From: Corbicula japonica | Taxonomy: Eukaryota; Mollusca; Bivalvia; Venerida; Cyrenidae | Direction: 5' to 3' | Length of the DNA: 64,000 nucleotides | Assembly: GCA_038501625.1 (NCBI GenBank) | Contig: JAZAYU010000009.1 | Location: 12,018,396 to 12,082,395, forward strand | Shown here: positions 3,801 through 40,200 of the stretch, piece after piece | Layout: each line of letters starts with the position of its first letter | Numbering within the stretch: the first letter of the stretch is position 1 | Notes under the pieces: generated by a model | Databases searched by the model: none | Told to the model about the DNA's origin: nothing | What the model saw: only the letters and a program-made list of their open reading frames with translations | Translations under genes and position numbers: made by a program

Positions 3801-6800
3801 CATTAAATGACTCAGATTCACATGACATTTGTTAGGATAAAGTGTAAAACTTGCACAGTATTGAGTATTCTTAATACCTTGGCTGAGGTTTGAGTCCAGA
3901 AAACCTGGCAACAAGATTGTAGAACTGAGATTGGAAACCAGTCTCAAATCTGAAGCATCCATCAGATGCTTGGGATTTGAGACTGGTTTCCATTCTCAGT
4001 TTTATGATTCCCAGTGCCAGAGAACTGCAAAGAGGGGGACATGGGAAAACCAGACCCCAATTTCTCTGAACTTAGCCATGGGACTTATGTTTTACAACTT
4101 TTGTCATATAAAGTTGAAAACATAACATTAATTCCCCTGGTAACCCCAGAATCTCTTGCAGTTAATTACCTAACAGAGTTTTAGTTTTGGGCTCCATGTA
4201 ACAGTGCGTAATAATTATGCTTTAGACAAAGGTTGTTGCACATAATTATAAACTGTTTATGATTATGTACATTATCTTGGTCCAGATGTTCTAGCAAAAT
4301 TTATATATAATAATTATAACCTTGGCAGAAAAGAATATAGGCCTCAGATTTTGTTTTGAAACAATTTCATATAATTGTATGTTTTTCTTTTCAGGGACTA
4401 AACTATCTTTAAATTAAAGTGCTTTTTATGCTGTCAGTATCAAAACCCTATCTAATGGATTATATTACTTAAGTAATGTTCAGTTTTCCATGTACTTTTT
4501 GCTTATGATACCATCATAAGGTGGCTATAAGGTCTCAGATGTCAAATTTATTGAGACTGTAAAAATGTTACTGATATGTTGTTAAAAATGTTTTTTGTCA
4601 ATACAGGCCATTAATTCTGAATACTCCATCACAGATTCTACCTGGGCCCAACATCATAAAAAAAAACTTGAGATCAGTTTCAAATCTCAGTGAACAGTGT
4701 AGATCCTGTTCAGAAGGTGCAGATCTTTTCTACACTGTTCGCGCAATGCCATAATTTCATTATCCTCAATAGCTATTCCATTTTTAAGACATTACTTAGA
4801 AAATTATTATTTGGAACTTTGATCAATAAAAAATATTTCAAGCATTCCATCAGGGTGAACAGAAAATAGTTTTTTACTTTGGCCATAAAAATCCATCAAT
4901 GTTGGGTTTTTATTGACGTTAACCATTACCATTAAAAGTTAGCTAAACTTGCATCACTGCTCAGATATTGGTTGAGTAGATCTAGAACATAATTATATTT
5001 AACAAACATTCCCAAACTTTAGACATTGATATGCTCCAAACTAGTGATTACCAGTATTAACTTCAAAGTACTAAAGATTAAGTATGATCTACACTGTTTG
5101 CTTTTTGTCAGAAATAACATAATGAATAAAAAAGCAAATCCTGATCATTCAGCATGAATGTGCCATCTGATCTGGATCTGCACTGGTAACACATGCAAAA
5201 AAACTAAGTATATAATTTATGCAGCAAACCATAAAGATCTTAAAAAAGCCACACTTTGAATCTTTGAGTTTGCCAACTTCTCCATCTTTGCCAGCTTAGA
5301 CTAAGATAGTTTGCCAAATTCTCCATCTTTCCCAGCTTAGACTAAGATAGTTTGCCAAATCCTCCATCTTTCCCAGCTTAGACTAAGATAGTTTGCCAAA
5401 TTCTCCATCTTTCCCAGCTTAGACTAAGATAGTTAGCCAAATTCTCCATCTTTCCCAGCTTAGACTAAGATGGTGTCAAATAAATCTGCAAACACTCAGG
5501 ACCCCTATTTCAACAAATATTTGATATTCTTTTTTATGGTTTTGGTCATTTGAGCTGAAAGAAATCAATACTTTATAACTCCTGCTATTATATTGTATTA
5601 TTATGTTAATGGAAATGTAAGCTGTACTGAACAATTTTATTGATATCAAATTTCCTGAAAAATCCATAAAGTTTTGACCCCATAAAATTTCATGATTTCA
5701 CAGTTTACAGTTACATATACACTGACAGTAAATGTGATTACAAATATTTCATTTATTTTAATTTCAGGATGAGAAAGAAGCAAAGATTGGTCGTCAGGCA
5801 GAAGGTGGCAAGCCAGTGGCATATGATGACGAGAACTGTAGAACATTGTTTGAGGCTTTCAATAGAGGAGCAAGATTATCAAGTAAACACATTTCAAAAT
5901 AAACTGTTAACCCTTTACTTAATAGATACTCTTGTGGCATAGGTGAACAGTGTTGATCAAGTGCTGTCTGATCAGAATCAACACTGCTTTTTATTCATTA
6001 GGTTATTTCTGACCAAGATATGAAGTGTAGATCCTGATCGGATGGCATGAATATGCTGGCGGAAATGGATCTGCACTGTTTGGATGTCGGATAGAACCTT
6101 TATATATGAGTTAACAAGACTTTCTAGGCCCAAGATCATATAACTAATCTGAAATCTCATACAACTTAATGGCTGAAATCTTTCAGAATGACCAGTTAGA
6201 AGCTATAGTTTAACTCTTTCCTCAGTATATACACAATTTTATTCATGTGCGACCAGTGTAGATCAAGATCAGCCGGCGCATCCGTGCTATCTGATCAGGA
6301 TCTGTACTGGTAGCATTTTGGTCAGACATAATGTTACGAATGAAAAAAAGCAAACAGTGCAGATCCTGATCAGATGGCACAGATGTGCTGGCTGATCTGG
6401 ATCTACACTGTTCGCCCTCACAATAAAGGTGTGTCTATGGAGGAAAGGATTAACATAAGTGCTAAGCACAGCATTTGTCACATTCAGTATCTGTTAAATC
6501 CAGATTAACCTCCACATCAGTCTAAGTCTACATTGTTTGCTAATGAGAAATTCTTTAAACCTCTATGAATGGACCCACAAGAGTCCAATACATTAAATTA
6601 GCAGGGTAAGTGTTAAAACAGGTGTGCAGTTAAAGCATCTATGTATTGTTATTAACCCTGTCAAATTTTTTTGGAGCCATAAAATTTGTGGGCTTTAGTT
6701 AATCAGGGGTTGAATCCAACAGAAAGCACAGTAGGGAACCTGAGTCAGTAATAGGGTAACTAGTTCATGCAAAATCAGTGCACTAATTTTGTTGATTTCA

Positions 6801-9800
6801 CATAGCGATTGAGACATAACTTTAAAATTCTCAAGAAATGTAGTATTGTAATTTAAAAAAATTGAAAACAACAAAAATTAAACAATCTTGATACTGAAAC
6901 TTTACCAAAATCTGCCCACAAATACAAATTAGCCATGTCTTGTGAAAATGTTTCTGTAAAATACTGTCATAAAGATGAGCTGACAACATTGTTTTTTGTC
7001 AGTTTTGTGGAAATGTTTTTAACGTAGTCGACAATTGCAGCATAATCACCTAATATCTAAAGGATAAGTATTCATATTTTTCTAAAATTAGCTAAAACTA
7101 AAGTGTCAGAAATTATAACCACATTCACAGTATCTTCTTTTGCATGAAGATGATTAATGTAGGATATATTGCAGGGTAGTTAGTTGGATAAGGTGATTGT
7201 TTGAATTTCTTAGAAAAGCCTTCTCCCTTTATTTCTTATGTTGTAGTGGCCAGTCCACAGAATTTGTAGATGGTTTGTTTCGTGCAATTTTGATACTTAA
7301 AGGGGCCATCTTTGATTTGGTAATTTTCTTGTTCATTGAATTAGAACATGAAATGATGACTGTAGATGGCCGTTAAATCTATTCTTGACATTTGTTGTGT
7401 ATACTATGCTGTTTATTAAGAACTATTGCTTTATGTAATTAACTTTCACAGATAATCTAAATTACAGAGACATATTAAAAATTTTATTTTACTTATTTCT
7501 AAATAAAAAATTCAAAGAAATGGAAAAATTACACCCACCATATTTGAAAATGAGAAGCTCATCTCCTTGCTTTTGACATTTATTGCATTATGTATCATAA
7601 ATTCTATGATTGAATGACATGCATCAAAATAGAAAGCAATCAAACAGCTTTAAATGCATGAAGAGGACTTAAAACAACAAAAAGTGGTCTTAGTGACAGT
7701 TATAAGCACACAAAATTTTAATGACCAAAATCTGTTGTTTTTTTTTCAGCAACATATTTTGAAGTTTTTAGCAGCAAAAATACCTTTGCATAGACATTAA
7801 TTTTGTCTTCAGTAGTTGATTAAGTACAAGTCTTGTACTTTTAATTTGAGTACTGAGCCCTGTAGAGTACTTGAAAAATAGTACTTGAGTAAGGACGAGA
7901 ACAAGTTATAGTACAAGTAGCGCAAACCTGATACAAAAGTTTATAGTATCCAAATAATAATTTTTAAAAGAATTATGCATACCCTAAAAATAATTTAAAA
8001 ACTGTTTTGCTACTAAGCCCTGCTTTCATTTGGTACGGACAGATAATGTTGTACCATTTTCTCAGCGAATATTGCTGCAGTGTGCAGGTGATGCAAGTTT
8101 GGAAGAAAGGAAACAATCCAAGAAAATGTTGATATAATGCATTCCCAGATTATTTTAAGATTTCTAAGAAATAGCTTATAGGATGTTTATTGTGTAACAT
8201 GACATATTTAATTTCTCAGAAATTATGCTGTTTATATTATACCAAAAAGATCTCACTGAACAATGTAATGTTATGATACTGGGTATTTTGTTTATCCCGG
8301 TAATGCACTATCATAACAATTGTCATTCATTCTCATAACAGCTAACTTGCAGAGGTGTGGCTTATTTTATAACTCTCTACTCAATGGATATTTCTTTTAT
8401 CACACGGGTGACTAGTTTAGATCCAGATCAGTTGGCACACCCATTCCTTTGGATCTGGATCTACACTTTAATCCTCTTGGTCAGAAATATCTTAAAGTTA
8501 TCTGTGTTGATCCTGATCAGACAGCACAAATATGCCATCAGTACAAATAAAAAGGGTAAGGGGTAGTATTATTTTTGTTGATCACGCATCTAGCAGTTTT
8601 AATGATTCTAGGTTCACTTAGGTTTTCTATGACTGTTCCTTTTTATGATATTGACAAAGTGTGCCAATATTTTGCCACCCTGACCACAATTGCCAGACAT
8701 CCAACCATAGCAATGTGCAGATAGCAAACACCATTAAACTATGCCACAGACTATTGACACCAATCAAAGATAATTTCAGGGAATAATAATTTCAGAAACT
8801 GCATTACAGAGATAATTATACTGCTTCTATTCAATTGCTATCAGATGCTTTTGAACAGTGTTCAAGATTGCTAGGTGATTATTTCATTGTAAAAAGGTTT
8901 ACAAAAGTTGTCTGGATTCTTCATTGTATAATACAGGAAAGAACTGTGAAGTTTGTTCATTAATACCCTTTACTCCATAGGATATGTTTGTTATCTATTT
9001 TCAAACTGTAGATCCAGATCAACTTGTACATCTGTGACATCTGATCAGGATCTACACATTTTGATTCATCAGGTTATTAACACTGTAAGCTCAATAATAA
9101 TAAAAAGTCATAATATGTGTTATATTTCTCAAGAATATTGTTGTGAAGGTTTACATTTGAAAATGCTATTTATTCTCGGGATTTCTGGAGTTAATAAATA
9201 ATAAGTATATATATACCTTTCAGATAATGGCAGATGTTTGGGATGGAAGCCTGCACCAGATCAGCCATTTACCTGGATCTCATATAATGATGTAAGTTAG
9301 CATACTGTTTGATATTCAGCTTTATGTATAATACATCAGTTCTTTTTGATAGACTTTTTTTTAACACTATATCTGCTGAATTAATGTAATGAACTCGTCT
9401 TTTCAGTATAATATAGTCCATTGGTTATTTAAAGGGTTATTTAAAACCAAAATTTGTTAATTCAATTTATTAACTAAATCAGATTGCAAAGGCGCACAGT
9501 CTGATTGCAAATGTTATAGATGCTGTTCTTAGCACTTAGATAAGGTTAAATATTGTTGGTGGTTGCAGGCATCGTGTATTTGTGTTTTCATGGAATCAAT
9601 TTTTAGCTCACCTGAGCTGGCTCAGGGTGAGCTATTAGGATCGATGAATGTCCGTCGTCCGTCCACACTTAGTTCGTTAACACTCTAGCGGTCACATTTT
9701 TGCTCCGATTGTCATGAAACTTGGTCAGGATGTTTGTCCCAATGATTTTTTGGACCAGTTCGAATATGGGTCATCTGGGTCCAAAAACTAGGTCACTGTT

Positions 9801-12800
9801 ACTAAAAATAGAATTTTCTTGTTAACACTCTAGCTGTCACATTTTTGCTCCGATTGTCATGAAACTTGGTCAGGATGTTTGTCCCAATGATTTCTCTGAC
9901 GAGTTCGAATATGGGTCATGTGGGTCCAAAAACTAGGTCACTGTTACTCAAAATAGAATTTTCTTGTTAACACTCTAGCGGTCACATTTTTGCTCCGATT
10001 GTCATGAAACTTGGTCAAGATGATTGTCCCAATGATTTCTCGAACGAGTTTGAATATGGGTCATCTGGGTCCAAAAACTAGGTCACTGTTACTAAAAATA
10101 GAATTTTCTTGTTAACACTCTAGCTGTCACATTTTTGCTCCGATTGTCATGAAACTTGGACAGGATTTTTGTCCCAATGATTTCTTGGACCAGTTCAAAT
10201 ATGGGTCATCTGGGTCCAAAAACTAGGTCACTGTTACTTAAAATAGAATTTTCTTGTTAACACTCTAGCGGTCACATTTTTGCTCCGATTGTCATGAAAC
10301 TTGGTCAGGATGTTTGTCCCAATGATTTCTCGGACGAGTTCGAATATGGGTCATGTGGGTCCAAAAACTAGGTCACTGTTTCTAAAAATAGAATTTTCTT
10401 GTTAACACTCTAGCGGTCACATTTTTGCTCTGATTGTCATGAAACTTGGAACTTGGTCAGGATGTTTGTCCCAATGATTGCTCTGACGAGTTCGAATATG
10501 GGTCATGTGGGTCCAAAAACTAGGTCACTGTTACTAAAAATAGAATTTTCTTGTTAACACTCTAGCGGTCACATTTTTGCTCCGATTGTCATGAAACTTG
10601 GTCAGGATGTTTGTCCAAATGATTTCTTGGATGAGTTCGAATATGGGTCATCTGGGTCCAAAAACTAGGTCACTGTTACTAAAAATAGAATTTTCTTGTT
10701 AACACTCTAGCGGTCACATTTTTGCTCCGATTGTCATGAAACTTGGTCAGGATGTTTGAGCCAATGATTTCTTGGACGAGTTCGAATATGGGTCATGTGG
10801 GTCCAAAAACTAGGTCACTGTTACTAAAAATAGAATTTTCTTGTTAACACTCTAGCGGTCACATTTTTGCTCCGATTGTCATGAAACTTGGACAGGATTT
10901 TTGTCCCAATGATTTCTAGGACGAGTTCGGATATGGGTCATCTGGGTCCAAAAACTAGGTCACTGTTACTAAAAAAAGAATTTTCTTGTTAACACTCTAG
11001 CGGTCACATTTTTGCTCCGATTGTCATGAAACTTGGTCAGGATGTTTGTCCCAATGATTTCTAGGACGAGTTTGAATATGGGTCATCTGGGTCTAGGTCA
11101 CTGTTACTTAAAATAACTTTGTTGTACTCAGGTGAGCGATAAAGGGCCATCATGGCCCTCTTGTTTCTTGTATTGGGCACAAGGAAAAAGGACTTAAGAC
11201 ACTCTTTTGATTCGTAAATTTAAAGAGACATTTAGAAAGGATTTCAAATATAGTTTTGTACAAAATTTTGATGGCAAAGATGGTGGAAATGCAGCCTGTT
11301 TTTGTTTTAACATTTGGTTACCTCATTGTCGAATATTGGTTATAATAGGTAACATACATTGCAGGTTAGATAGCTACTCTCATGTCATATATACAATAAT
11401 TAAATTGCCATTTATGGTCATTTGACATAAATTTGCTTCTCTAGGTTTTGACCCGAGCCAGTAAAACTGGTGCTGGTTTGATTGCATTGGGTCAGGCAGC
11501 AAATAATTCTACACACATTGGAGTCTACTCACAGAATAGAGCCGAGGTAAGTCCCATTTGTATCGATGTAGATAAATCTCGTTATTATCCACAGTTACCC
11601 ATAGGAATACCAGAAATGTCTCCATATACTACAGGTTATTTCCCCTAGCTAGCTCAGGTGTCAAAGCTTTAAGATACAGATTCCAGTTCATATTATGCAG
11701 CGTTTTCTTTTGATGTGTTTGAAGCAAGAAGCAATACATCTTTTGTTATAATTTAAAAATGTTTTTCTCTTATGTTATGTAGTGATCAGTTTAGTGCAAA
11801 ACGCTAATCTTTGCAGATTTAAATCTAGGTTTAATATTTACCGCACTTAACTCATATGGAAAAACAGGTTGTAAAACACTTCACTGCAGTCATACAAATT
11901 GGTAAATTAAGCAGATTTTAATTCTTCAAAAACATGTAAAGCACCTTGACAACCAATATCTTTTCTGCAGTTTCCTTTATGTATCTGAAATGTCATTTTA
12001 TTTCTTTGGAATAAATAACTAATTATCATATTTGTTGTTGGTGTTACTTTGATTATGAACACCATTCAGAAGATTAGCACACTTAGTTTTGTGAAACTCA
12101 GAGGGCTAGTAGCTCATGTTGAACTTTGACAGATACTTTTGCCACACATTTAATTTGAACTTACAGATAAGAAAAAGCTGAAAAGATAATCATTTGAGAT
12201 AAATTGCTTAAATTTACAAATCCGTTTTTTTTTATTTCAAATAAAAACAAATCCCTGAATCAGTATAGATTAAAGCTTTATAGATTAAAGCTTTAAATAA
12301 AAAATTAATTTTAATTTGTTCATTGAGGGTAATAAAATCTTTTTGTAGTTTAACCTTTTCCTCGATATACACACCTTTATGGCATATATGAACAGTGTAG
12401 ATCCAGGTCAGCCAGCACATCCATGCCATCTAATCAGGATCTGCATTGTCTGCTATTTATTAGGTTATTTTTTACCAAATATTGACCAGTGCAGATCCTG
12501 ATTAGATGGCACAGATGTGCTGGCTGATCTGGATTTACACTGGTCGCACGTGTGTAAAAATGCGTATATATGGAGGAAAGGGTTAACCCTTCACATTTAC
12601 TATAACATTGACCGAAGTTTGAATGACAACAAGCTTTTTCAGAGCAAGGAGTGGCAAAACATCACAAGTCAGAACATTGTCCAAAAGTCCAGTAGTCTAT
12701 GAGATGCATAATTCATGTCCCAAGCAAATGTTTGTCAAGAAAGAGCTTCTTTTTTTTTTTAAAAGCAAGATGAAAGTTAAATTTGTTGTTTTTACCTTAA

Positions 12801-15800
12801 ACATGATGTGAACTTTCAATTTTGAACTTATTCTACAAAACATCTTTGAGTCTACATCTTGTATTTGAGACTGTTAGTTTGTCAGAAAATCATTTAATTT
12901 TTGTTTTTATGAGTCAAAAACTAAAGTACTCCTTATATTTACTCTCTTGATCACAAAACAAGAACAGTGTAGACCAGATCAGTCATGCCATCTGTTCAGG
13001 ATACTCACTGATCACTTTCTTATTTATTAGGCTATTTCTGACCAAGTAGCACATGGTTTAGATCCTGATCAGCCAGCATGTACATGTACATGCTGGCTGA
13101 TCTGGATCTACACTGTTTACACATGCAATAAAATGTGTATGTAAATTTGGAGTAAAGGGTTAACAAAACGATCATTTTGATTTTATGTCCTATGTTGATG
13201 AAATTAACAAATAATATTGTTGATTACAAAACATTTTAGAATCAGTTGCATATGTCCGAGTTGAAATAAACTTTCTTGTTTATCAAAGAATTCAATACTT
13301 TGAGTTTCGTTTTCTTTCAGTATTTCATAGCAGAGCAAGCCTGCTACATGTACTCTATGTGTATAGTGCCGTTGTATGACACCCTCGGTGTGGAGGCTTG
13401 TAACCATATCATTGTACAAGGTGAGAAGCATGCTTTTACAATCATTATATACATGTAATATGTTAAAACTGGTTATATACATTCATATCAATTTGCAAGT
13501 AGAATGTTAATGAAATTTACTGACTAGGGTAAAATGCAAGAGTGCCAGTCAATATTGTTGAACAATAAATGTTGAGAAATGTTGACTCACAATCATTGTT
13601 GAGTGTGAGAATTGTTGTTCAACAATATTGCTTAAGATTATCATCCTGGTTTTAACAATCAGTATATAAAGTAAGAAGTAAGAAGGTTTTTGCAGAAAAG
13701 CATGTAGTCTCCTATATTCATGACTTCCTTAAGACAAAATAATAGATGAATAATTGTTCATGAGAATTTAAATTTATGCAGTTGCATGAGAAAAATTAAA
13801 TCTCAGGAAATAAATTGATGCATTGCTACACATTGATAGCTGATAATGTTGAAGAGTTGCTTATAAGTAGCATTGTAAACTTCTTATTATATCTTTAATA
13901 TATCTTTTTACCCTTAACCCACTGAATTCCCGTTTCCTTTCTTTATATCTGGTTCTTCTATTCCTAGTATATAGGAATGTTTTGCTGGAAAAAATACTGA
14001 TTGAATAGCTCACAATGTAGACTCTGATAGTACCATGATACTTTGCCTTTCTTCCTATGACAGTATATTTAAGTTTGGGGCTTTTAGAGAAAGATGCCAA
14101 GTACCTCTGTGGGCATTGTCTCTGGCACAGAAGGGGGACCATGGTTGAAAGCTTTTAAATTAATACTGGTTTTGGACCTATAATTCAAAGTGAACAACCA
14201 CTAGTCCTCTTCTGGGTTCCATCCGATTGCATGGCACTGATATGCAGGCAGATTAATGGGTCTTAAGTTGTTAGAAATGCATGTAGAATCCAGCATGCTG
14301 TTAAGCCATTCCTCCATAGATAGACTCCATTATTGCATGGGCGAACAGTTTAGATTCAGATCAGCCAGCACAGCTGTGCCATCTGATCAGGATCTAAACT
14401 GTTCACTTTTTGATTCGTTAGGTTATTTCTGACAAAAATGCGACCAGTGCAGATCCTGATGAGACGGCACGGATGTGCCAACTGATCTTGATCTCACTGG
14501 TCGCACATGCGTAAAAACACGTATTTATGGAGGAAAGGGTTAACTTAGATACAGACATGTATTTGAATAATAACAAGAAAATCAACATCCTAGCTGCATG
14601 AATATTTAAAGTACAAATTTAAATTTTGATTAAAAACACAATCAGGATGTTAGATTGAGATATTGATGCAAGTTGGTAAATATTTATCTTTTTAAGTAAA
14701 CAAGTCTCAATACAGGTTGTATGACATTCATGATACCAGTTATAAGTGAGCCAGCAACTATTGTTACTGGAATAAAAGTTTGTTGATACCAACATAAATA
14801 TCTCTACCAAGTTTTGCAAGTAACTTAAAATTTAAAAAACTGCAATATTTGCACAAGACTGATGAATTGACATCAGAACTTGTGCCCATAAAGCTCATTA
14901 TACATTTGTACAGTAAAACGTTGTACAGTTAAAGCTGTTTAAACGTTCACATATTTCTAGCCACCACATGTCATTATCAGCTAATGAAAATATCTTTTGT
15001 ATAATATATAATATTTTATTAAGCAACTTTATGTTGTTACTCTGACAGGTTTGGCCTTGAAAGTCTATAGTTAAAAACTGTGTGATACAAACATGAAAAT
15101 ACTGCACCTATGCATTTGCAAGGGGTTGGAATTGAATGCTTTGAAATGTAAAATATGATTTTAAATGTTAAGAACAGCCCAGTGACCAGTGGATGTAGAA
15201 GTTACATTAAAACCATGCCCTACAGATCGCCAGTATAAGTTAACTTTTTCTCTGTACCATTTTAAAGATAAATTTGCTCTATATTATGCCACCCAAAAAA
15301 GACCACCCTTCCATTAACAACACATTTTCCCCAGTTTAAGCCATGGCTTTAGTAAGACGTTACACTGTATATCACCAACAACCATTTTATGCAAGAAGTT
15401 GCAGTTTTTGGTGAAGAATTTTAAATTTAATTTAGCATGTTCTGTTTGATGACCACTTTTTAGAACTAAACATTCTAAACAACTATAAATTGTTTTTTGC
15501 ACTGCAGCTGAACTCAACCTTATTATTTGTGACAAAAATGAGAAAGTTAAGAATCTCCTCGGCCGAATGAGCGCAACTCCCAATCTCAAGACAGTAGTTG
15601 TCATGGAGCCCATTACAGAAGAAAACCAAGGGCTAGCACAGAAACATGGCGTACAAATTATCACATATGAGGACCTAGAGGTAAATCTTAGTGACCTTTG
15701 AAGAGTATGTAACAACAGAAGTCACATTATTGTCATGTGGTTTTGGTAGTCCCTTCTAAAAAAATGGGCAAATGTACCTCCTAAAAACAGAATAGTAGAA

Positions 15801-18800
15801 CAGTTCCTCCTGAAAACTGTTTTTGGCAAAACAGTCTAAATTGTTGGATAGTTTCTACGTAAACAGTCAAAATTGTATACCTATTTGCTGAAAATACCTT
15901 GATATGTTATTTTAGACACTGGTGTCAGCTGATCTGGATCTACACTGTTTGCCAACACCATTAATGCATAAGTACGGAGGAAAGGGTTAATCAGAGGTCA
16001 AAATAGAAGAAAACGATTGAAAACATCATTTAAAACCTGTGGTATTCTGTTTTGTGATAATAAAAAAAAGTTGTAACCTTGAATCCTGGTTGAACAATTA
16101 GCCATAAATCTTATCTTTATTCCCACTGAGAGATCTTGATCACTTATTTATGTAATGGTTTATTGAAGACCAACATTGATAAGTTTACAAACACAAGACT
16201 TGTATGTTTACTAAACATTATTGATTTTGAGAACATATTCTCAAATAGACTATTATTTTTCCTTGACTTATAGGCAACATTTCTCTAACATTGTATGTTG
16301 TAAAATGTATATTAAGTGGAAATAATCTGTATATGCTGTGAAAATATGTGGCAAATAACCGAAAAGTTAATAACCCAACCTCCAAGAAAACTGGCTTAAC
16401 ACTTAACACCATGGATATAGCTTTTATTCCATGTGATTCCAGTATAGTCTAGATCTAAATCAGTATGAACATATGTCTTCTGATCAGGATCTGCACCGTT
16501 TGCTTTTAGATAGATTAGGTTATTTCAGATCAGGCTGCTCGGATGTGCAGACTGATCAGGATCTACACTGGTTGTTCATGTGATGTAAGCCATAACTCCT
16601 GGAGTGAAGGTTCAACTAAAATATTGCTTCAAAATTATATTCTATAAGAAAGGGTTAGTATGAATTTTGTTACATGCTATAAATAAAAAGTGTTGTCATT
16701 AAGACATGTTTCAATACAAGCTAAAATATTTATTCCCATTTCAGAAAAAAGGCGAAGCATCTCCACAAGAACCAAAGGTAATTGATATAATTATACACCA
16801 GATTTTATTGAATAAGAATCTAGTTGATAAGTTAAAAGTTTTAGTCTTCCAATTATATATTATCTTCTGAATTTTAGACCCATGGTATAAATCTTTCGAT
16901 CATATATAAACTCCTGAATATTAGGCACTTGAAGTTGTTTGCGTTTGACAGCATATTTTCAGGATAAAGCTTATTGTTGAATCCTTACAAGATAACAGGT
17001 CCATTATTTGGATGATTTTATCAAGGATGTGGACATTTGGATTAGTAGATTATTTACTGACTGGTTGTTTAGGGATAAGATGTCATAAATCATGTCAAAG
17101 ATTAGCAAGCTTCCTGCAGTGGTTACCTCCCCTTACAATTAACCTTCCCTGTAACAAGTTTTAGCCCCATCAAAGCTTATTCATTTGTTTATTGTTGATA
17201 TTTAGCTTACTTGAGACAGAGGCTCATGGTTAGCTATTATGACAAGCCTTTGTCAGGCATCCAACAGTACATAGATTCAAGGTCCCCCTCTATGTTTACT
17301 GATTATCATTGTAAGTCCATTGAAGAGCTGTGGTCAGAATTTAAGAACCTTATCCATGAGGGAATAAACCTCTTCATTCCCTCAAAGAGATTGGGATCAA
17401 AACCATCTCTCCCCTGGATCACCCAAAGCATCAAAAGACAAATTAGAAATAGAAGTAAATTATACGTTAAAATGAAAAAAGGTTCTTGTCCCAAGGTCAA
17501 ACAGCATTACAAAAATTTAAGAAACAAGGTTAAACATGAAATAAAACAGGCCCATACAAACTACCTGGAATACGTCCTAGAAACTCAGTCTGGTGATCCA
17601 GATAACCCCCAATCAGGTCAAAATTTCTCTCGTAAAAAGCTTTTCTCCACTATTAAAAATGCTAAACAGGATACCCAAGGCATCGCCCCCCTATTGGAAA
17701 ATGATAAACTTATCACAGATAGTAGGGGCCAGGCAAATGTCCTTAACCGTCAATTTCAGTCCGTCTTCACTCCAATGAATCCCCTCAAACTAGGCCAACT
17801 CTGCTCCATGAAAACTAAACACCTGTTTAGCACCACCAAATTACCCCAATACCCCAAGATGCCTGATATATCCATAAGTGTAGGTGGTGTCCAAAAGCTC
17901 TTGTCCACTTTACAGATTGGCAAAGCTTGCGGCCCAGACGACCTTAAACCTATAGTTCTAAAAAATTTAAGTGTACAAATTGCCCCTTTGGTCACCAAGC
18001 TCTTTCAAAAGTCATTAGATACAGGCACCATCCCTTCCGACTGGACCAAGGCGAATGTCACTCCCCTCTTTAAGAAAGGGGATAAAAGTAACCCCGCAAA
18101 CTATAGGCCAATATCCTTGACATGTGTTCTTTGCAAATTAATGGAACACATTGTCGCCTCAAACATCACTAAACATTTCCAGGTCAATAGTATTCTTTAT
18201 CACCTTCAGCATGGTTTTAGGTCCAAAATGTCATGTGAAACTCAACTTTTAGGGCTTGTCGAGGACCTATCCCGAAATTTAATCCAAGGTCACCAAACAG
18301 ATCTAATTCTCCTAGACTTCTCTAAGGCATTCGATAAGGTCAACCACCTCAAGCTGTTATACAAACTTCATCAACATGGCATTCAAAACAACACTCTTCA
18401 ATGGGTCAAATCATTTCTTATTGGTCGCCGTCAGTCTGTCTTGGTCAGTGGTGAAAAGTCAGACGAGGTACCTGTCACCTCAGGAGTCCCTCAGGGTTCT
18501 GTTCTTGGCCCTCTGCTCTTCTTGCTCTACATAAATGACCTGCCTGAAAATATTATTTCACAGGTCCGGTTATTTGCAGACGACACAGCTGTATACATCT
18601 TGGTCAAAAATGATTCAGACCAGACTTTGCAAGAAGATCTAAACAGGTTACAAAAATGGGAACACACTTGGGACGTGGAATTCAATCCCTCCAAGTGCAC
18701 GGTTATAAATATCACAAGATCAAAGCACCCTCACAAAACAAATTATACATTGCATGGTCAAACCCTAGCCACAGTCAGTGATGCCAAATACCTTGGTGTT

Positions 18801-21800
18801 TGCATCACTTCTGATCTTAGCTGGAACAAACACATAAATCAGGTCACCACAACAGCTAGCCAAACACTAAATTTTATCAAACGGAACATTCCCACTAAAC
18901 ATCAAAACATCAGGCAGTTCGCTTACAAAACCCTTGTCCGACCACAACTTGAGTTCAGTGTGGAGTCCCCATACACAACAAAACATCCATAAGATCGAAA
19001 TGGTTCAGCACAGGGCCGCTCGATGGGTCACCAGTGATTACTCACATTATAGCAGTGTCACAAGCATGCTAGAAAAGCTGGGGTGGCGTTCCCTTGGTAA
19101 CAGAAGGTGTGATTCCAGACTACTTATGTTCTTTAAAATTGTCCATGGACTGGTTGCTGTTCCAATGCCTCAGTATGTTTTACCCACTACTCGTCTCACT
19201 TGACACATGCATCCCCTCTCTTTTAGGCAAATCCAAACTCCTTGTAATTACTATAAATGTTCATTCTACCCTGCCACTATTGTACTGTGGAATTCTTTGC
19301 CAGCAAATGTTGCACAGGCACCCACCCTGGACCAGTTTAGGCAGGGGGTAACTAAACTGTGCCATAATTTCTAAGCGACTATGCTGTTTTTACTCTTTTT
19401 AACTGTAAATCTAGTCTTTTAACTAACACTATCAGCTTTAATTCAGAACTCTCACAAATACATTATGTATTACTTTTTTTCTCCTGTACATTTCTTCTTT
19501 TAATATTTCTTGTACAGACGCGCACCTGCATAAAATGCTAAACAATAGTGTCATGCAGTATTTATAGATAGATAGATAAATCCAAGCGGATTCTCTCATC
19601 CGTTTGCATCGGACAACATCTCCTTTGAAACCACTGGGTAATAGAAAAATATTGTTTGAAGCATCCTGGCTTTGATGGCTTTAGAAATTTTAAGGTAATG
19701 TGGTGTTAATCATTCCCCAATGAAGGGCTTTTAAGCAAAATCTTATAGTATTCTCCCAGACACTGCACACAACATTAAAAAACTCATAGAAATTTTCCTT
19801 GGAATACCCTCTTCCAGTGCTGTTCAGGCTAAGTCATTTGTTTAAAAGATAGCAGGGGCATTAAAACTCAAAGCCAAGAACAAGCTGTGAACTCAAAATT
19901 GAATGTTTGTCATTTTATTACATAACTGAATGTTATTGTGTTTTTATTACAGCCATGTAAACCAGAGGATTTGGCTGTGATTTGTTACACCAGTGGCACC
20001 ACAGGTAAGTCCTACAGTGGGATAAGTTTCTTGATGGGGTAGTTAAACTAAATAAAACTACACTGATAAGACTCTCATTTCATAAATATTGAAAGTTATT
20101 TCAGAATTATTTTTAAAAGTTTAATATAATTTGATTAATTAAGAATAGGAAAATGGTTTGAAATTGACATTAAAACCTCTCATTGAGCCTACCCCAGTAA
20201 GACCACTGTTTTAATGTCCTTTAATAGTTTCCTAAAATTCAGACCACCCCACTATTTAGGCCACTGTTATTCAGTCCCACAGGTGGTCCTTATAGTATGG
20301 TTCACTGTACTTCTGTAGAATATTTATGGGCCAATGAATCTGTTAAGGTGATCATCAAAAATGCCCCCCCTACCCAAGTCGGATGATGGCCTTTAAGGAA
20401 ATATTCCTTGCATCTTATTTTATGAGCTGTTTAAACTGCATTTGCCTGTCAATCTATTCACTTGAAATGCAGATAATGGAAACTTTGTTTTAAAAAAATC
20501 TTGCTTAAAATTATCATACACAGGAAGAATGTTTGGTTTGGAATTTTGTTACTTATGACATACTTCAGTTTTCAGTTAAATTTATTGCTTTCAGGTTTAC
20601 CAAAAGGGGCCATGCTTACACATGCAAACATATTAGCACCAGTTCTAGCTTGCTTGCATTTGTTTGTGAGTATTTGAATATATTGTATATATTTAACTAT
20701 TGCAAATTTTAGGGTCTGTACATGACTATTATAACAAGGATGTTTATTTCCAGGCATGCATTGTACAGTTCTAAATGACAAAGACTTTATGTATAATTTT
20801 AAAATTACTCAAGTGGTATAGAAATAAATAACATTGAACAGGGTTTGGTTCTTCCATGTTTAACCCTTAACTCTTTATATATGCATTGTTAATTGTGTGC
20901 CAATAGTTTTGATCTAAATCAGCAAGCACATCTGTGCCATCTAATCCAGATCTGCTATAGTTGTATCTTGGTAGGAAATATCCTAATTAATCTATAAGTG
21001 AGCAATGTAGATCATGATAACAGGGCACAGATTGCTGTCTGTTATGGATCTACACTGTCCGCCCTTGCAGTAAAGGTGTATCTATGGAGTAAAGGGTAAG
21101 GCTCACAGAGCTATGCATTTTGATAAAGTTATGCAATTGACATCAGAGCACTACATATTGTAAAACATGTTAAAATGTGACTTATGAAAATGTTGCAGTA
21201 ATATATTTCAGATTAATTAGAAATAACACTGTAAAATTACAATGGTTTTTATTTCCTTAATGATTTTCTCTATGTTAATGTATTTAAACAGAGTCTGCAA
21301 AATTAAAGAAGCATTAGATAATTCTCTGTATGTAAAGGTTGGGGCTTTTGGACATCTTTTAACAATAGTTTTTACTGATGTCAAAACATTAAAATTACAG
21401 TAGAAAAAGCATCTGTATGTTGACACATTTTATTGCATTGCAATACAAAGTGCTTGTTAACCATCTAAGAGAAAACATATAGTTGTGTAGAAGTTAAACA
21501 ACTTATTATTCTAAAAGAAAGAACTAATTTTTACATATTTGGATTCATTTTAGAACACAAACAACTTGAAGGTTACGCCAGATGATTCATTTATATCTTA
21601 TCTACCTTTAGCACATTCTTATGAAAGGTTGTGTGAGGTAAGAATGATTTTTTACACTTTTTATACTTTTATGCTAAAAAAAAGTCACCTTTCTGGCCAG
21701 TGTAGATCCGGATCAGCCTTTTTATCCTCACAATCTGAACAAAGTTTACACTGATTGCTTTTCAGTGTATAGATTTCTGCAAGACTTCCCATTGACCAAG

Positions 21801-24800
21801 GAATATGCTAGCTAATGTTGCAAGGAAGTCATATCCAGTGCACAATAATCTTCTGTTGAAGATGCTTTGTATTCTCAATTTCAATTTCCTTCAAACTAAT
21901 ATTATTTCAGTATTTTAACCTTTTACTTCATTGATAAGGCTATTAACCCATATGTGAATCATATGATCAGGATCTACACGTTTTGCTTATTAGTTAGAAA
22001 TATCCTAATGGATATCAAGGCACAGTGTAGATCAAGATCAGATTTACAAGCTGATCTGGATCTACACTGGTTGCACATGGGATAGAAGCTCTATCCGTGC
22101 AGTGAAAGCTATGTGGTAGTGACAATAAGAGATTTTTTATTATTAAACTCTAAATTATTCTTAAATGCAGCATATAATTATCTGAAAGGCAACATGGTTC
22201 ATGTCTGTTTAAGGGCTTACCACACTCCTCCCTATCACGTTCATTGATAAAACATAAATTATCAAAATCTCAATAACAGCAAAACGCAGTTAAATGAAAC
22301 TTTGCACAAATGAATGTTATTTATGTATCTTTATTTTGCTTATGGTAAGACGCGTTGGAACAGTAAAGAAAAATAGAGAGATCTAAAAATTCCCTCAACT
22401 TCTATTTACATAAATTCACAAATACTAAACAACACAAAACATCTTTTGAATGTCCACATGAGTAATATGATACTGACAATAATTTTTTGTGTCCTTGTGA
22501 CTTACATATGTAAACCTTACGAGATATTAGTAAAAGTGTGTTTGACCTTCAATTTCCTGGTCGCTACTTGGTCGCGTAAACGGATGACAATCACTGATTT
22601 CTCTTTAAGTAGCTGAAAGTTCTTTACAAAGTACAAAACATTTTCTTGTCAGTATCATTATATTCATGTGGGAATTTAAAATTATGTTTTGTATTGCTTA
22701 GTTTTTGTGAATTTATGTAAATAGAATTTTAAGGAATTTTAGGTCTAGCTTTTTTTCTTTACTTTTCTAACATGTCTTACTGTATGCAAAATAAAGATAC
22801 ATTAGTAACATTCATTTGTGCAAAGTTTCATTGGACAGCATTTTGCCATTATTGAGATTTTGATAATTTTCTTTTTATCGATAAACATGCTTGCTAGGAG
22901 TGTGGTAAGCCCTTAAAACCACATGTATGGTCATATGCATTACACATATAGATAATATTTTCTGAAAATCAGATTTTCTGGTTCTTTTGTCTTCGATAAC
23001 AAACTAATCCTATTTCAGGGCTGTGTGTACACTAGTGGAGGGAGGATAGGGTTTTTCCAGGGAGATGTACGAAAATTGTTAGATGATATCAAAGAGTTAC
23101 AGCCGACAGTGTTTCCCTCTGTTCCTAGATTGCTGAACAGAGTCTATGATAAGGTAAACTAATCCTTTGTTTAAATTTTTCTTTTTCTTCTTTTTAATTC
23201 TTTCAATTTTAGTTGTGAAATAATAGATATCTATGATGATTTATCTTAGAATATATAACTGGGCGGAGTTCAGGCTCTGTGCCTTTCATGATAAATATCT
23301 AAGAATCTGAACATCACCCTGTGATATGTTTGAAGATATATCTATGATAATTATTATTTCAATTATTCTAACAAGAATTAGCTTCAGAGAGCTTTTAAAA
23401 TAATGTAACTAGGTCCCTTTGAACATTTTTCAGGTCAAAATGTTGTGTTTCAGAAATATCACAATAAAAAGTTTTAATAAAAGCTCATGAAATTTACATT
23501 AGTAGAAAGGGAATTGATTCTATACAGTACAAAAAAAAACACAAAATGGAATATTCAAAAGACATCAGAATTGTAACAATGAATGTCTTACATTAGTGGC
23601 CATCTTTGAATACCTGTATCTTTGAGACAAATCCAAATATTAGATGAGATATTCATTTCCATAATGGCAATACTTCACCCTCAGTTCTTGATAACTATAT
23701 GAGTGACCAAAATGTAGAGAAACCCCTTTTATTTATTACGCTTCCGCCAATATGAAGACTTACTCCAAGTTAGTCTCCCTCACATGAACACAAGCCTCAC
23801 TGGATTGTCTCCCTTTTATGATCACAACTTTTACAGTAGTAGTTGTATTGGCATAGTTATGATCTCTTTTTTTCGGAATAGTTGCAAATGCAGTAATATT
23901 TCCGTAAAAGTACAAAAATTGCCTACAATACCATTTTAGGCCTGGCAAAATGAAACACATTTATTTTTAAACCTATGTAACCAGGGTTATGCATTGAGAG
24001 TTATTGCAGTTCTACCATTTTTTTTGAATCAGTTAGAAGACTAATACAATTACAATATCATGATCAATAAATCGTAAAAGTGGTTCATACAATTCCAAAT
24101 GATGTATCCCAGTATGATCTACAAATATCATCTTTAAACAACTTTAAAATCTTTCATTTATAACTGTACTTTAAAATCTGTCTTGCAAAATGTATGAGAT
24201 TGCAAATAATGGATAACAGTAAAAACAATAACATTTTATAGTAGTTAATAATTGTATTTTTCCTTTTTACATGCAAGATTACAACAACATAAAAACATTC
24301 ACTTAGCACTCAGAATATCTTCATAGATGATGTTTATTATCCAGGATGTAAAAATCTACAAGCATAGTGAACAAAATGGAAAGAAATAAGCACATTGTAA
24401 GAAAACATTAAACACATCTTTGAACTGTGTGGATATATTGGCACTTAGCCATTGGAAAATATTAACTCGTGAAGAGTTAATTTTATTCCTTGAAATGATG
24501 TCATGAAGTAGAGTCGATGACATTGCATATCATTAGGTAAAAGCGAAAAGGTTCTATCTATTTCTTAAGTTTTTGTGCCGACTGAGATAGGCAGGTAGAC
24601 ATATAGGGATCCTATAGTTTGGCCACGTGGTGGTGGCAGTGGCAGTATTGTCCAGTAGTCCCCCAATTTTAATATGAAACTTAATGTTGCTTATAACTTT
24701 GAAAGTACTTGACCTGTTAACTAAATACTTGGTATACATCATGTGCATGAACTAAACTGGCAATGACAACAATAATGATAACTCCTGTTTCACTATTTTA

Positions 24801-27800
24801 TTTAGTTACCGGTATGCCATGTTTCCATTGATCACTGCGCTTTGTTTTTCAACAAAATTGAACAGCGCGCTAGCGCTTTATGGTAAATTTGCCAGCTCTC
24901 GCATGCACGTCAAATCTGCATGAACCGCACCAAAATAAGAATCATTACTTATATTTACATTTTATTCATTTTTTTCTTTAAATAAACTTAAGTCGAACGC
25001 TTTCAAAAATAAGTATTAAGTGAAAAGGGAGAGTAATACGTGGGAGTTTTCAATAGTAACAGCCATGACGTTACTGACGTCATTACGGGTCATGCGGTTC
25101 ATGCAAAATGACCCGAATTTTTTTAAACGAAGAAATCAATAGGAATGTAAATATCACATGTATAACAGGCACCTACGAATCTTGCAGGATGTATTAGGAT
25201 GTAAAAATACGCACAATGGAATACGGTAGTGCCAATGACCCATTGTTAATTCAAATAATTAAAATTTATGGCATGAACTTCTCATTTACTGTCTGGTGGA
25301 TTTCTTTGAATTTTTTAATGCGCATAGATAATTAGGCAAACTGATGGTGTAGATGGTGGTTAACAAAGTGATGGTTTCTTACACAAATATTTATATCTAG
25401 ATGGTTGTAAAGAAAGGATTTTTTTCTTACAAAATTTTTATTACAGTTATGACAGTTCCTTATTTTGAAACACAAAAAGTGTCTTATTTCACTATGGACC
25501 CAACAAGGACCCTAGAAGATCCAAGCGAAATTCTTAGGTGTTCAAGTTTTAAAAACTTTTCACCTGTGTTATTAACAGTTTACTCCATAGATACAATTTT
25601 TATCCCATGTGTGATCATTGAAGATCCAAGTCAGCAGGCACATCCATGTGTTCTTATCAGAATCTGCACTTTTCATGTTTTGATTTATTTGGCTTTCTTT
25701 ACCAAGAAGCAGTGTAGGTCTATTTCAGATGACTGGCAGATCTGGATCTAAAAGATTACTCATGTGATATATGACATAACCATGGAGTAAAGGAGTTATT
25801 CTATTTGATACTCATCTATAAAATTACCTATTAAAGCAACGTAAAGCCTGTCTCTTTGGTCACAGTAGCACAAATAGCGAGGCTCATAAATTACAGCTCC
25901 TGTATAAATCAACTGATGTAACATGTCAAGGTCATCAGATATTTGGAAGATAAAGCCAAGGTAGTCACCCTCACTTAGTTCTCTAAGTGCAGCTAGATAA
26001 ATTGCTCCCGATTTGTCAAAAGCCATATCTGATACAAGAAAACCAGTACATTGTGAAATCTGAGCTTCATTTAAAGTGTTTCCATTCCAGTCAATTTTAG
26101 AAATTTTGTTGGTTATACAAATGTAAAGTGCATTTGAATTTGCTAAGATACATCCATGTGCAAATCCAAATGTGTGGCTGAAGGTTGTGGTGTATATGAT
26201 AGTTTTTTTAATTTCGCCTTCAGTGCTTACAATTTTCACTTCAGAAGTTTTAGGAAATAAAACTATTAGATTTTTGTCAATGGAATCCATTCCAGTGCAT
26301 TTTCCTTGAAGCATGAACATCTTTTTTAAAGTCAACTGGCAATCATGTGAAATATGGAAAATTTGAATTTGTGTCTTTTTATCTTGTTTAATAAATGCTA
26401 AAGCTACTTGGCAATCACTTATCTTTGTTAAAGCTTTAAACTCTAATGAAAATGGAAATGTTCTCTTTGCTGTTGTTTTCCTTGTTTCTAGATCAACCAG
26501 TTCTAATATGTTTTTACCCCTTTGTACAAAGGCAATTATCATTGAATCAGATAATTTACGGATACCATATATTGTACAATAATCTGGAACTTTGTTTTTA
26601 GCTCACCTGTCACATAGTGACAGGGTGAGCTTTTGTGATCACCCTTTCGTCCGTCGTCCGTCCGTCGTCCGTTCACAATTGTTGTCCGCACTCTAGCGGT
26701 CATAATTTTTATCCGATCTTCTTCAAACTTGGTCAGAATGTTTATCTCATTGATATCTAGATCAAGTTCGAAACTGGGTTATGTGACCTTGAAATCTAGG
26801 TCACTAGGTCAAATTATAGAAAAATCTTGTCCGCACTCTAGCAGTCTCAATTTTGGTGTGATCTTCTTTAAACTTGGTCAGAATGTTTATCTCAATGATA
26901 TCTAGATCAAGTTCGTACCTGGGTCATGTGACCCTTAAAACTAGGTCAGTAGGTCAATTTAAAGAAAAAGCTTGTCTGCACTGTAGAGGTCTTAATTTTG
27001 GTCCGATCTTTCTGAAACTTTGTCAGAATGTTTATCTCATTGATATCTAGGTCAAGTTTGAAACTGGGTCATGTGACCTTGAAATCTAGGTCACTAGGTC
27101 AAATTATATAAAAATCTTGTCTGCACTCTAGCGGTCTTCATTTTGGTGCAATCTTCTTTAAACTTGGTCAGAATGTTTATCTCAGTGATATCTAGATCAA
27201 GTTCGTAACTGGGTCATGTGACCTTGAAAACTAGGTCAGTAGGTCAAATTAAAGAAAAAGCTTGTCTGCACTCTAGAAGTCTTAATTTTGATTGGATCTT
27301 CTTCAAGCTTGGTCAGAAAGTATATTTCGAGGATATCTAGGTCAAGTTTGAAACTGGGTCATGTGACCTTGAAATCTAGGTCACTAGGTCAAATTATATT
27401 AAAATCTTGTCTGCACTCTAGCGGTCTTAATTTTGGTCCGATCTTCTTCAAACTTGGTCATATGTTTATCTAAATATGTCTAGGTCAAGTTTGACAGGTG
27501 AGCGATTTAGGGCCAATTGGCCCTCTTGTTTATCATGTCAGTGCAAGATAGATATCTAATATTTCTTCTAACTTTTGATTTTTCTGTCAAATAACCAAAT
27601 ATGATTTGATCTATGTTACTATCAATACTAACATCTTTGCCAACTGAAAATCCAAAGTTATAGAAGTTGTTTTCTTGAGCCACATGTTTTATGTCCATAT
27701 TCAGCAGTGTTAACTTCTTTGATGTACTTTTCATAGCAACAAAAAGTCTGACTTTGTCTCCGGCAAACTCCTTACTCTTTATGTTCTGCTGTTAGTTAGT

Positions 27801-39529: not shown

Positions 39530-40200
39530 CATTTATCAACAGTAATGTTTTAAACTTCATAAGCAGGGATGTTGTCAAAGTATCGACTGTAGTAAACTTC
39601 ATAAACAGGGATGTTGTTAACTTATCAACTCTAGTCAACTTTATAAACAGTAATGTTGTCAACATCATAAACAAGGATGTTGTCAACTTCATAAATAGGA
39701 GTTTTGTCAACTACATAAACAGGGGTGTTGTCAACTACATAAACAGGGATGTTGTCAACTACATAAATAGTAATATTGTCAACTACATTAACAGGGATGT
39801 GGTCAACTACATTAACAGGGATGTTTTCAACTTATCAACTCTAGTAAACTTTATAAACAGTAATGTTGTCAACATCATAAACAAGGATGTTGTCAGCTTC
39901 ATAAATAGGAGTTTTGTCAACTTCATAAACAGGGGTGTTGTCAACTACATAAACAGGGATGTTGTCAACTACATAAATAGTAATATTGTCAACTACATTA
40001 ACAGGGATGTGGTCAACTACATTAACAGGGATGTTTTCAACTACATAAATAAATGTTGTCAACTGCATAAACAGGGATGTGGTCAACTTCATAAACAGTG
40101 ATATTGTCAACTTATGAACTGTAGTCAACTTTATAAACAGTAATGATGTTAATTTTTTCAACTGTAATGTCAACTTTATCAACTGTAATATTGTCTACTC
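39530..40200. repeat. 24 bp minisatellite with 210 bp higher-order repeat
   Basis: Units of the type GTTGTCAACTACATAAACAG-GGAT repeat every 24 bp. A larger block starting CTTATCAACTCTAGT recurs at 39621 and 39831, 210 bp apart. Because 24 is a multiple of 3, long frames stay open on both strands (39799-40101 + and 39841-40182 -); these are taken as by-products, not genes. Confidence 0.9.

What the first reader, a model, noticed from the sequence alone, without database searches (positions are those of the whole stretch)
9605..27528. Three-way covarying ends in two copies of an array-bearing element
At 9605 the 5' end reads CACCTGAGC, its hairpin partner GCTCAGGGTG and the far 3' end CTCAGGTG. 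At 26600 the same three places read CACCTGTCAC, GTGACAGGGTG and TGACAGGTG. All three segments changed together, keeping both the local 5' hairpin and the 5'-3' terminal pairing. This points to selection for alternative base pairing (5' with its loop arm, or 5' with the 3' end), perhaps as a switch in mobilisation.
Basis: partly seen in the sequence, partly recalled or inferred. Interest (0 to 1): 0.75.

Follow-up and report, generated by a model that had tools for sequence, protein, structure and literature searches.

The report
Helentron-type jumping elements with hairpin ends
The two matching sequences are copies of a well-known kind of non-coding jumping DNA element; their paired ends are real, but in many other copies the far end no longer matches, so the proposed three-way switch is doubtful.

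Summary
Window 9605-11166 and 26600-27531 each have a 5' end, an adjacent hairpin arm and a far 3' end that are mutually complementary, and all three differ between the copies. The anatomy is that of a HINE/DINE-1-like element (non-autonomous Helentron). This three-part layout, with end repeats that differ between types, is already published for Drosophila and oyster.

I tested the prediction in the window's own 1.07-Gb genome (5,424 exact 5' hairpins). In 50 copies with both ends, the variable dinucleotide agrees between 5' end and hairpin arm in 48 of 50, but between 5' end and 3' end in 33 of 50. For TGTC-type 5' ends it is 27 of 27 against 12 of 27. Mismatched subfamilies include copies with long clean arrays at different sites. 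The hairpin and a short shared core persist; the 3' tail often does not follow.

A selected three-way switch over the variable tail is not supported. Only about three 5' states exist, so no covariation statistic is possible. Genome-wide 3' counts did not complete, and the autonomous partner was not searched.

The parts
9605..11166 (+). HINE copy 1 (TGAGC-TG-GCTCA type) from hairpin to CTCTTGTTT end; preceded by a T-run at 9600-9604
9605..9633 (+). 5' hairpin of copy 1: subTIR 9605-9617, loop 9618-9619, IR arm 9620-9633 with one extra G
9650..9664 (+). GTCC-type microsatellite of copy 1
9676..11093 (+). Central array of copy 1, 145-bp unit, 9.7 copies
11127..11137 (+). 3' subTIR of copy 1, complementary to the 5' subTIR over 11 bp
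11144..11158 (+). 3' palindrome GGGCCATCATGGCCC of copy 1
26600..27531 (+). HINE copy 2 (TGTCAC-ATA-GTGACA type) from hairpin to CTCTTGTTT end; inserted in a host coding frame
26600..26631 (+). 5' hairpin of copy 2: subTIR 26600-26613, loop 26614-26616, IR arm 26617-26631 with one extra G
26648..26672 (+). CGTCCGTCGTC microsatellite of copy 2
26682..27491 (+). Central array of copy 2, 145-bp unit, 5.6 copies
27492..27503 (+). 3' subTIR of copy 2, complementary to the 5' subTIR over 12 bp
27510..27523 (+). 3' palindrome GGGCCAATTGGCCC of copy 2

Best explanation
Both copies are HINEs, that is, non-autonomous DINE-1-like Helentrons, from two of several subfamilies in one, probably bivalve, genome. 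Inferred mechanism: a Helentron Rep/helicase supplied in trans nicks in the T-run at the 5' end, recognises the 5' hairpin (subTIR plus IR) and the short core shared with the 3' subTIR, displaces one strand by rolling circle, stops at the 3' palindrome and inserts the strand between Ts. The hairpin and the core GCTCACCTG/CAGGTGAGC are the parts that persist. The variable tail beyond the core agrees at the 3' end when both ends descend from one lineage, and disagrees when 5' and 3' modules have been exchanged or the 5' hairpin replaced. Shown by calls: the anatomy, the pair counts, the mismatched groups at different sites, and an in-frame empty site for copy 2. Inferred: the enzyme, nicking, strand displacement, termination, and module exchange as the cause of mismatch.
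For: Layout of the two copies matches the published HINE/DINE-1 parts. The flanks of copy 2 rejoin in one open frame with 3 (or 0) T and no duplication. 5' end and hairpin arm agree in 48 of 50, 5' end and 3' end in 33 of 50. Mismatched copies form groups: TGTC 5' with AG-type 3' tail in 8, TGTC with AGCAGG or CGCAGG 3' in 5. Arrays are long and clean in for example L055 (14.2 x 166 bp, 0.89 of the stretch) and L057 (13.2 x 145 bp, 0.92), and flanks differ. The same 5' hairpin type occurs with both array classes, and the same 3' end occurs with both hairpin types.
Against: No autonomous Helentron was searched for, so the partner is assumed. Retention of the 3' core is partly by construction: 3' ends were sought allowing up to 2 substitutions in CAGGTGAGC, and 40 of 50 carry both cores exactly. 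The hairpin arms are about 25 nt apart, so their agreement is partly linkage. About 30 of 81 distinct 5' ends had no recognised 3' end. Sampling is one contig, C1, plus the window. TGAG-type copies do agree in 21 of 22, which three-way selection would also predict.
Confidence: 0.8

Rival explanations
1. One reading: selection keeps two alternative pairings of the 5' segment (with its loop arm, or with the 3' end) over the variable tail, acting as a mobilisation switch.
For: Both window copies and 32 of 50 copies agree in all three segments. Published DINE-1 types also differ in both subTIRs together.
Against: 17 of 50 copies lack 5'-3' agreement at the variable dinucleotide, in groups found at different sites. 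Oyster HINEs mostly have one mismatch between subTIRs in nine of eleven elements (PMC7492417 passage).
Confidence: 0.08
2. Pure descent: a few founder subfamilies arose once, and agreement of the three segments is only inherited from them, with no selection on pairing.
For: Only about three 5' states occur at the tested positions, and copies within a group are alike.
Against: The hairpin dinucleotide is paired in each group of two or more copies, although the stems differ (TGAGC, TGAGCAC, TGAGCC, TGTCAC). Two elements with other end sequences in the window have the same layout.
Confidence: 0.2
3. Fold-back copy correction: the single-stranded intermediate folds, and repair or template switching copies one arm onto the other, so the arms agree without selection.
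For: Would explain why the hairpin arms agree more often (48 of 50) than the distant ends (33 of 50).
Against: One extra unpaired base in the 3' arm is present in 73 of 81 distinct 5' ends; copying one arm from the other should remove it. Isolated single-arm mutations are left uncorrected in copies such as L017, L041 and L054.
Confidence: 0.08

Closest known systems
Cg_HINE elements of Crassostrea gigas (PMC7492417; passages and part 1 of 2 of the Discussion seen)
   Same: 5' subTIR of 11-12 bp, complementary IR, GTCY/GTCC microsatellite, repeats averaging 140-180 bp, 3' subTIR, palindrome; oligo-T insertion without target duplication; related flanks with unrelated arrays.
   Different: The sequences were not compared here. 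The passages seen do not count 5'-IR against 5'-3' agreement per copy, though they report perfect subTIRs in under half of the flank pairs for most elements.
DINE-1 of Drosophila (PMC2374699, passages seen)
   Same: 13-bp subTIRs, partial and/or interrupted IR beside the 5' subTIR, GTCY microsatellite, central repeats, 3' stem-loop, TT insertion; subTIRs differ between species and between three D. willistoni types. The authors take kept structure despite sequence change as a sign of function.
   Different: A conserved core of about 90 bp was described there; I did not look for it here.
HINEs and Helentrons of the mite Metaseiulus and others (PMC4067079, passages seen)
   Same: SubTIRs, 3' palindrome, T-rich insertion, central repeats in some copies.
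   Different: Mite HINE subTIRs are themselves palindromic and lack the separate IR; here there is a separate IR.
Pearl (CvA/CvE) and MgE elements of bivalves (only as cited in PMC7492417; originals not seen)
   Same: Short arrays of about 160-bp repeats between HINE-like ends.
   Different: Sequences were not compared here.

Membership tests
HINE / DINE-1-like (non-autonomous Helentron) | Inverted subTIRs of about 11-15 bp | tested here: met
   11 bp in copy 1, 12 bp in copy 2; not kept at the variable tail in 17 of 50 copies
HINE / DINE-1-like (non-autonomous Helentron) | IR beside the 5' subTIR, complementary to it | tested here: met
   Both window copies; dinucleotide agrees in 48 of 50 copies
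HINE / DINE-1-like (non-autonomous Helentron) | GTCY-type microsatellite in the left flank | tested here: met
   9650-9664 and 26648-26672; it was also a search condition for the other copies
HINE / DINE-1-like (non-autonomous Helentron) | Central tandem repeats | tested here: met
   145 bp x 9.7 and x 5.6
HINE / DINE-1-like (non-autonomous Helentron) | Palindrome downstream of the 3' subTIR | tested here: met
   GGGCCATCATGGCCC and GGGCCAATTGGCCC
HINE / DINE-1-like (non-autonomous Helentron) | Insertion at T-T without target site duplication | tested here: met
   Copy 2: flanks rejoin in frame with 3 or 0 T; copy 1 not tested
HINE / DINE-1-like (non-autonomous Helentron) | No coding capacity | tested here: met
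   No open frame of 110 aa or more lies within either copy; shorter frames were not examined
HINE / DINE-1-like (non-autonomous Helentron) | Autonomous Helentron partner sharing the ends | not tested
   Search not sent; the tool was busy
One Helentron family by the rule of PMC4067079 | At least 11 bp identical subTIR between the two window copies | tested here: not met
   They share AGCTCACCTG, 10 bp; by that rule they are two families, although their arrays are about 69-74% alike

The most novel reading that the evidence does not exclude
The 5' hairpin is a self-contained cassette that is swapped between element lineages. Elements with a foreign 5' cassette, whose tail no longer matches the 3' end, still multiply, so only the roughly 9-bp core has to pair with or resemble the 3' end. 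The extra base in the hairpin arm, seen in 73 of 81 5' ends, would keep hairpin arm and 3' end distinguishable.
Probability: 0.3. Interest if true: 0.45.

Novelty: new member of a known kind. Interest (0 to 1): 0.3.

Why it matters
A genome with thousands of copies that carry matched and mismatched ends is a natural experiment on which end sequences the Helentron machinery needs; PMC4067079 itself says biochemical studies are still needed (passage). It also corrects a two-copy inference: agreement of three segments in two copies was not a rule in fifty.

Tried and rejected
Viral and prokaryotic collections. The 3' pattern gave 0 matches in viral contigs and 0 in genome contigs. The 5' pattern gave 1 in viral contigs and 0 in genome contigs. 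The one hit, L001, has no tandem repeat, and by my reading it is dense phage-like coding sequence; I took it as chance and left it out of all counts. The hairpin of a second family gave 0 in viral contigs. Rfam gave no match in the window.

One search was badly designed: the pattern was not oriented, so it mostly re-listed the same hairpins from the other strand. Its ten loci largely duplicate earlier ones and were de-duplicated before counting.

AGAGCC-type elements would have been a third state for the 5'-3' test. No 3' end of theirs was found in five copies read over about 2.5 to 4.8 kb (L008 with L081, L026 with L080, L082, L083 with L085, L084), so this is unresolved. L008 and L084 also hold another element in that stretch.

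Genome-wide counts of 3' types were asked for 20 times with one pattern and never answered. The search for the autonomous Helentron was not sent.

Rows dropped before the count of 50: 78 loci plus the window gave 89 5' ends, 56 of them with a recognised 3' end; removing duplicates left 50. 81 distinct 5' ends were counted, so about 30 had no recognised 3' end (locus ends, long array, or 3' end lost or diverged). L080-L085 are not in the count of 50.

Fold-back copy correction and pure descent were considered and are kept as rivals.
Full report
Observation. Copy 1 reads AGCTCACCTGAGC / TG / GCTCAGGGTGAGCT at the 5' end and CTCAGGTGAGC at the 3' end. Copy 2 reads AGCTCACCTGTCAC / ATA / GTGACAGGGTGAGCT and TGACAGGTGAGC. 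The 5' and 3' ends match over 11 and 12 bp. The hairpin has one extra unpaired base in its 3' arm (fold). The 3' subTIR-plus-palindrome motif occurs at these two places only, against 0 in 100 shuffles. A de novo scan for the three-part layout followed by a stem of 5 or more gives 26 rows, against a shuffle mean of 1.0 and a maximum of 3 in 60 shuffles. Many of those rows lie inside tandem arrays and are not elements.

What it is. Each copy has a T-run, the 5' hairpin, a GTCC-type microsatellite, an array of 145-bp repeats (9.7 and 5.6 units), a 3' subTIR, a GC-rich palindrome and a terminal CTCTTGTTT. This is the published anatomy of HINEs and DINE-1-like elements (PMC7492417: passages, and Discussion part 1 of 2; PMC4067079: passages; PMC2374699: passages). 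No open frame of 110 aa or more lies within either copy. Copy 2 lies inside a host coding frame on the minus strand: the flanks read ...SCTDMINK and NKVPDYC..., and they rejoin in one open frame with 3 T (or with none), with no duplication. The upstream part of that gene has a weak B-box match (E 0.00018, 22 bits, under the 24.1-bit cut-off); the downstream part has no Pfam match.

Host. The genome has 1,069,688,145 bases in 1630 contigs and is unnamed. Among the 120 listed matches of the window's reverse transcriptase the only organism names are metagenome bins of Thiodiazotropha and Sedimenticola, which I recall as clam symbionts, so those hits may be host contamination. With the HINE type this suggests a bivalve; I did not test it.

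Testing the covariation. The pattern AGCTCACCTGN{0,20}GGTGAGCT has 2627 + 2797 exact matches in the genome and 0 for the reversed control. I read 78 loci on contig C1 plus the window and obtained 50 distinct elements with both ends. I scored the two bases that follow CACCTG. 5' end and hairpin arm agree in 48 of 50; 5' end and 3' end agree in 33 of 50. All three agree in 32, only the hairpin in 16, only the 3' end in 1, neither in 1. For 22 TGAG-type 5' ends the hairpin agrees in 21 and the 3' end in 21. For 27 TGTC-type ends the hairpin agrees in 27 and the 3' end in 12; the remaining 15 have a 3' tail of AG type (8), AGCAGG or CGCAGG (5), or single other forms (2). One further copy (L058) has neither type.

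Are the mismatched copies single elements? In L055, 14.2 units of 166 bp cover 0.89 of the stretch, and in L057, 13.2 units of 145 bp cover 0.92. The array ends 19 bp before the 3' core in L040, L042, L055 and L077, the same as in the matched L014, L054 and L061. The flanks of the mismatched copies shown differ from one another. Coverage by the array is lower in L072 (0.62), L053 (0.57) and the L017 copy (0.57), which are weaker examples.

Modules. The 166-bp array class occurs with TGAGCAC and with TGTCAC hairpins, and the 145-bp class with TGAGC, TGAGCC and TGTCAC hairpins; the right end AGTACTTTTGTACTCAGGTGAGC occurs with both hairpin types. L067 and L072 (TGTCAC-GAA-GTGACA, 3' CTCAGG) share loop and left-flank wording with the TGAGCAC-GAA-GTGCTCA elements. 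This fits replacement of the hairpin in an existing lineage, but exchange of a larger left module is as likely. Shuffling of HINE flanks and arrays is already described for oyster.

The extra base. Of 81 distinct 5' ends, 73 have one extra base between the two half-stems of the 3' arm (G 30, T 26, A 17); 5 show no inner pairing in either register; 3 did not fit the frame of the test, two of them AGAGCC-type with an extra A one step further out. PMC2374699 already calls the DINE-1 IR partial and/or interrupted. One listed copy, C21:522723, has an added C in the 5' arm that would pair with it, so it is not absolute.

Number of independent changes. With position 9 other than T, 247 oriented matches exist (124 + 123). 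By my count of the capped listing about four in five are one further subfamily, AGAGCC-GAA/AAA-GGCTCTG-A-GTGAGCT; the rest are scattered single forms. So about three 5' states exist at the tested positions. Copies within a subfamily are not independent, so I give counts and no P value. The hairpin arms are about 25 nt apart, so their agreement is partly linkage. Single-arm mutations stay uncompensated in individual copies (for example L017, L041, L054), as expected of decaying copies. Better support for the hairpin comes from different stems in different subfamilies and from two elements with other end sequences in the same window that share the layout (57.8-59.1 kb and 50.6-52.2 kb, minus strand); in the second of these the 5' and 3' ends differ at one base.

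Verdict. The finding is a correct reading of two HINE copies. The local hairpin agrees with its 5' arm in nearly all copies scored. The third partner often does not follow: mismatched ends are common among TGTC-type copies and occur in several-copy groups. A switch between hairpin and terminal duplex over the variable tail is therefore unlikely; one confined to the short core is not excluded. The kind of element, and end repeats that differ between types, are already in print, and imperfect subTIRs are reported as the majority state in most oyster HINEs. I found no paper that counts the pairings per copy in the listings, which cover only the held open-access library.

Noticed in passing
window 57844-59057, minus strand: A third HINE-like element with other ends: 5' TATACCCCCACAAAC..GTTTGAGGGGGTATA hairpin, CGGT microsatellite, 145-bp array, 3' TGTGGGGGTA followed by a palindrome.
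   Followed up: partly
window about 50584-52190, minus strand: A fourth HINE-like element: 5' TATCCCCGCGCC..GGCGAGGGGGATA, 156-bp array of 9.2 units, 3' CAGGCGGGGGGATT with palindrome and CTCTTGTG; its 5' and 3' ends differ at one base.
   Followed up: partly
window 59200-60290: A 169-bp array ending in CGGCGGGGGATAATAAT without the hairpin or microsatellite, perhaps a truncated relative.
   Followed up: no
window 17199-18992, plus strand: Reverse transcriptase frame (RVT_1, 6.4e-37) of a retroelement.
   Followed up: partly
window 25796-28529, minus strand: Host gene with a weak B-box match, interrupted by HINE copy 2; the stretch before the element also changes frame near 27792.
   Followed up: partly
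L083 (G000:C1) and L084 (G000:C4): Two stretches 99.4% alike over 2525 bp; where L084 has a TGAGCAC-type 5' end in a T-run, the continuation of L083 (L085) has plain Ts: a paralogous empty site for that end.
   Followed up: partly
L026, minus strand, 7979-8015: The 3' end of one element runs straight into the 5' end of another (CTCTTGTTTAGCTCACC): insertion into the terminal Ts of an earlier copy, or a head-to-tail product.
   Followed up: no
L058: Hairpin arm (GCACAG) and 3' end (ACACAGG) carry the same T-to-A change while the 5' arm changed elsewhere (TGACC); a single copy, possibly chance.
   Followed up: no
G000:C21:522723-522759: A copy whose 5' arm has an extra C that would pair with the usual unpaired G of the hairpin arm.
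   Followed up: no
window 39551-40199 and 5267-5471: Other tandem arrays (units of about 24, 42 and 210 bp; 41 bp) without visible HINE ends (the first stretch read).
   Followed up: no
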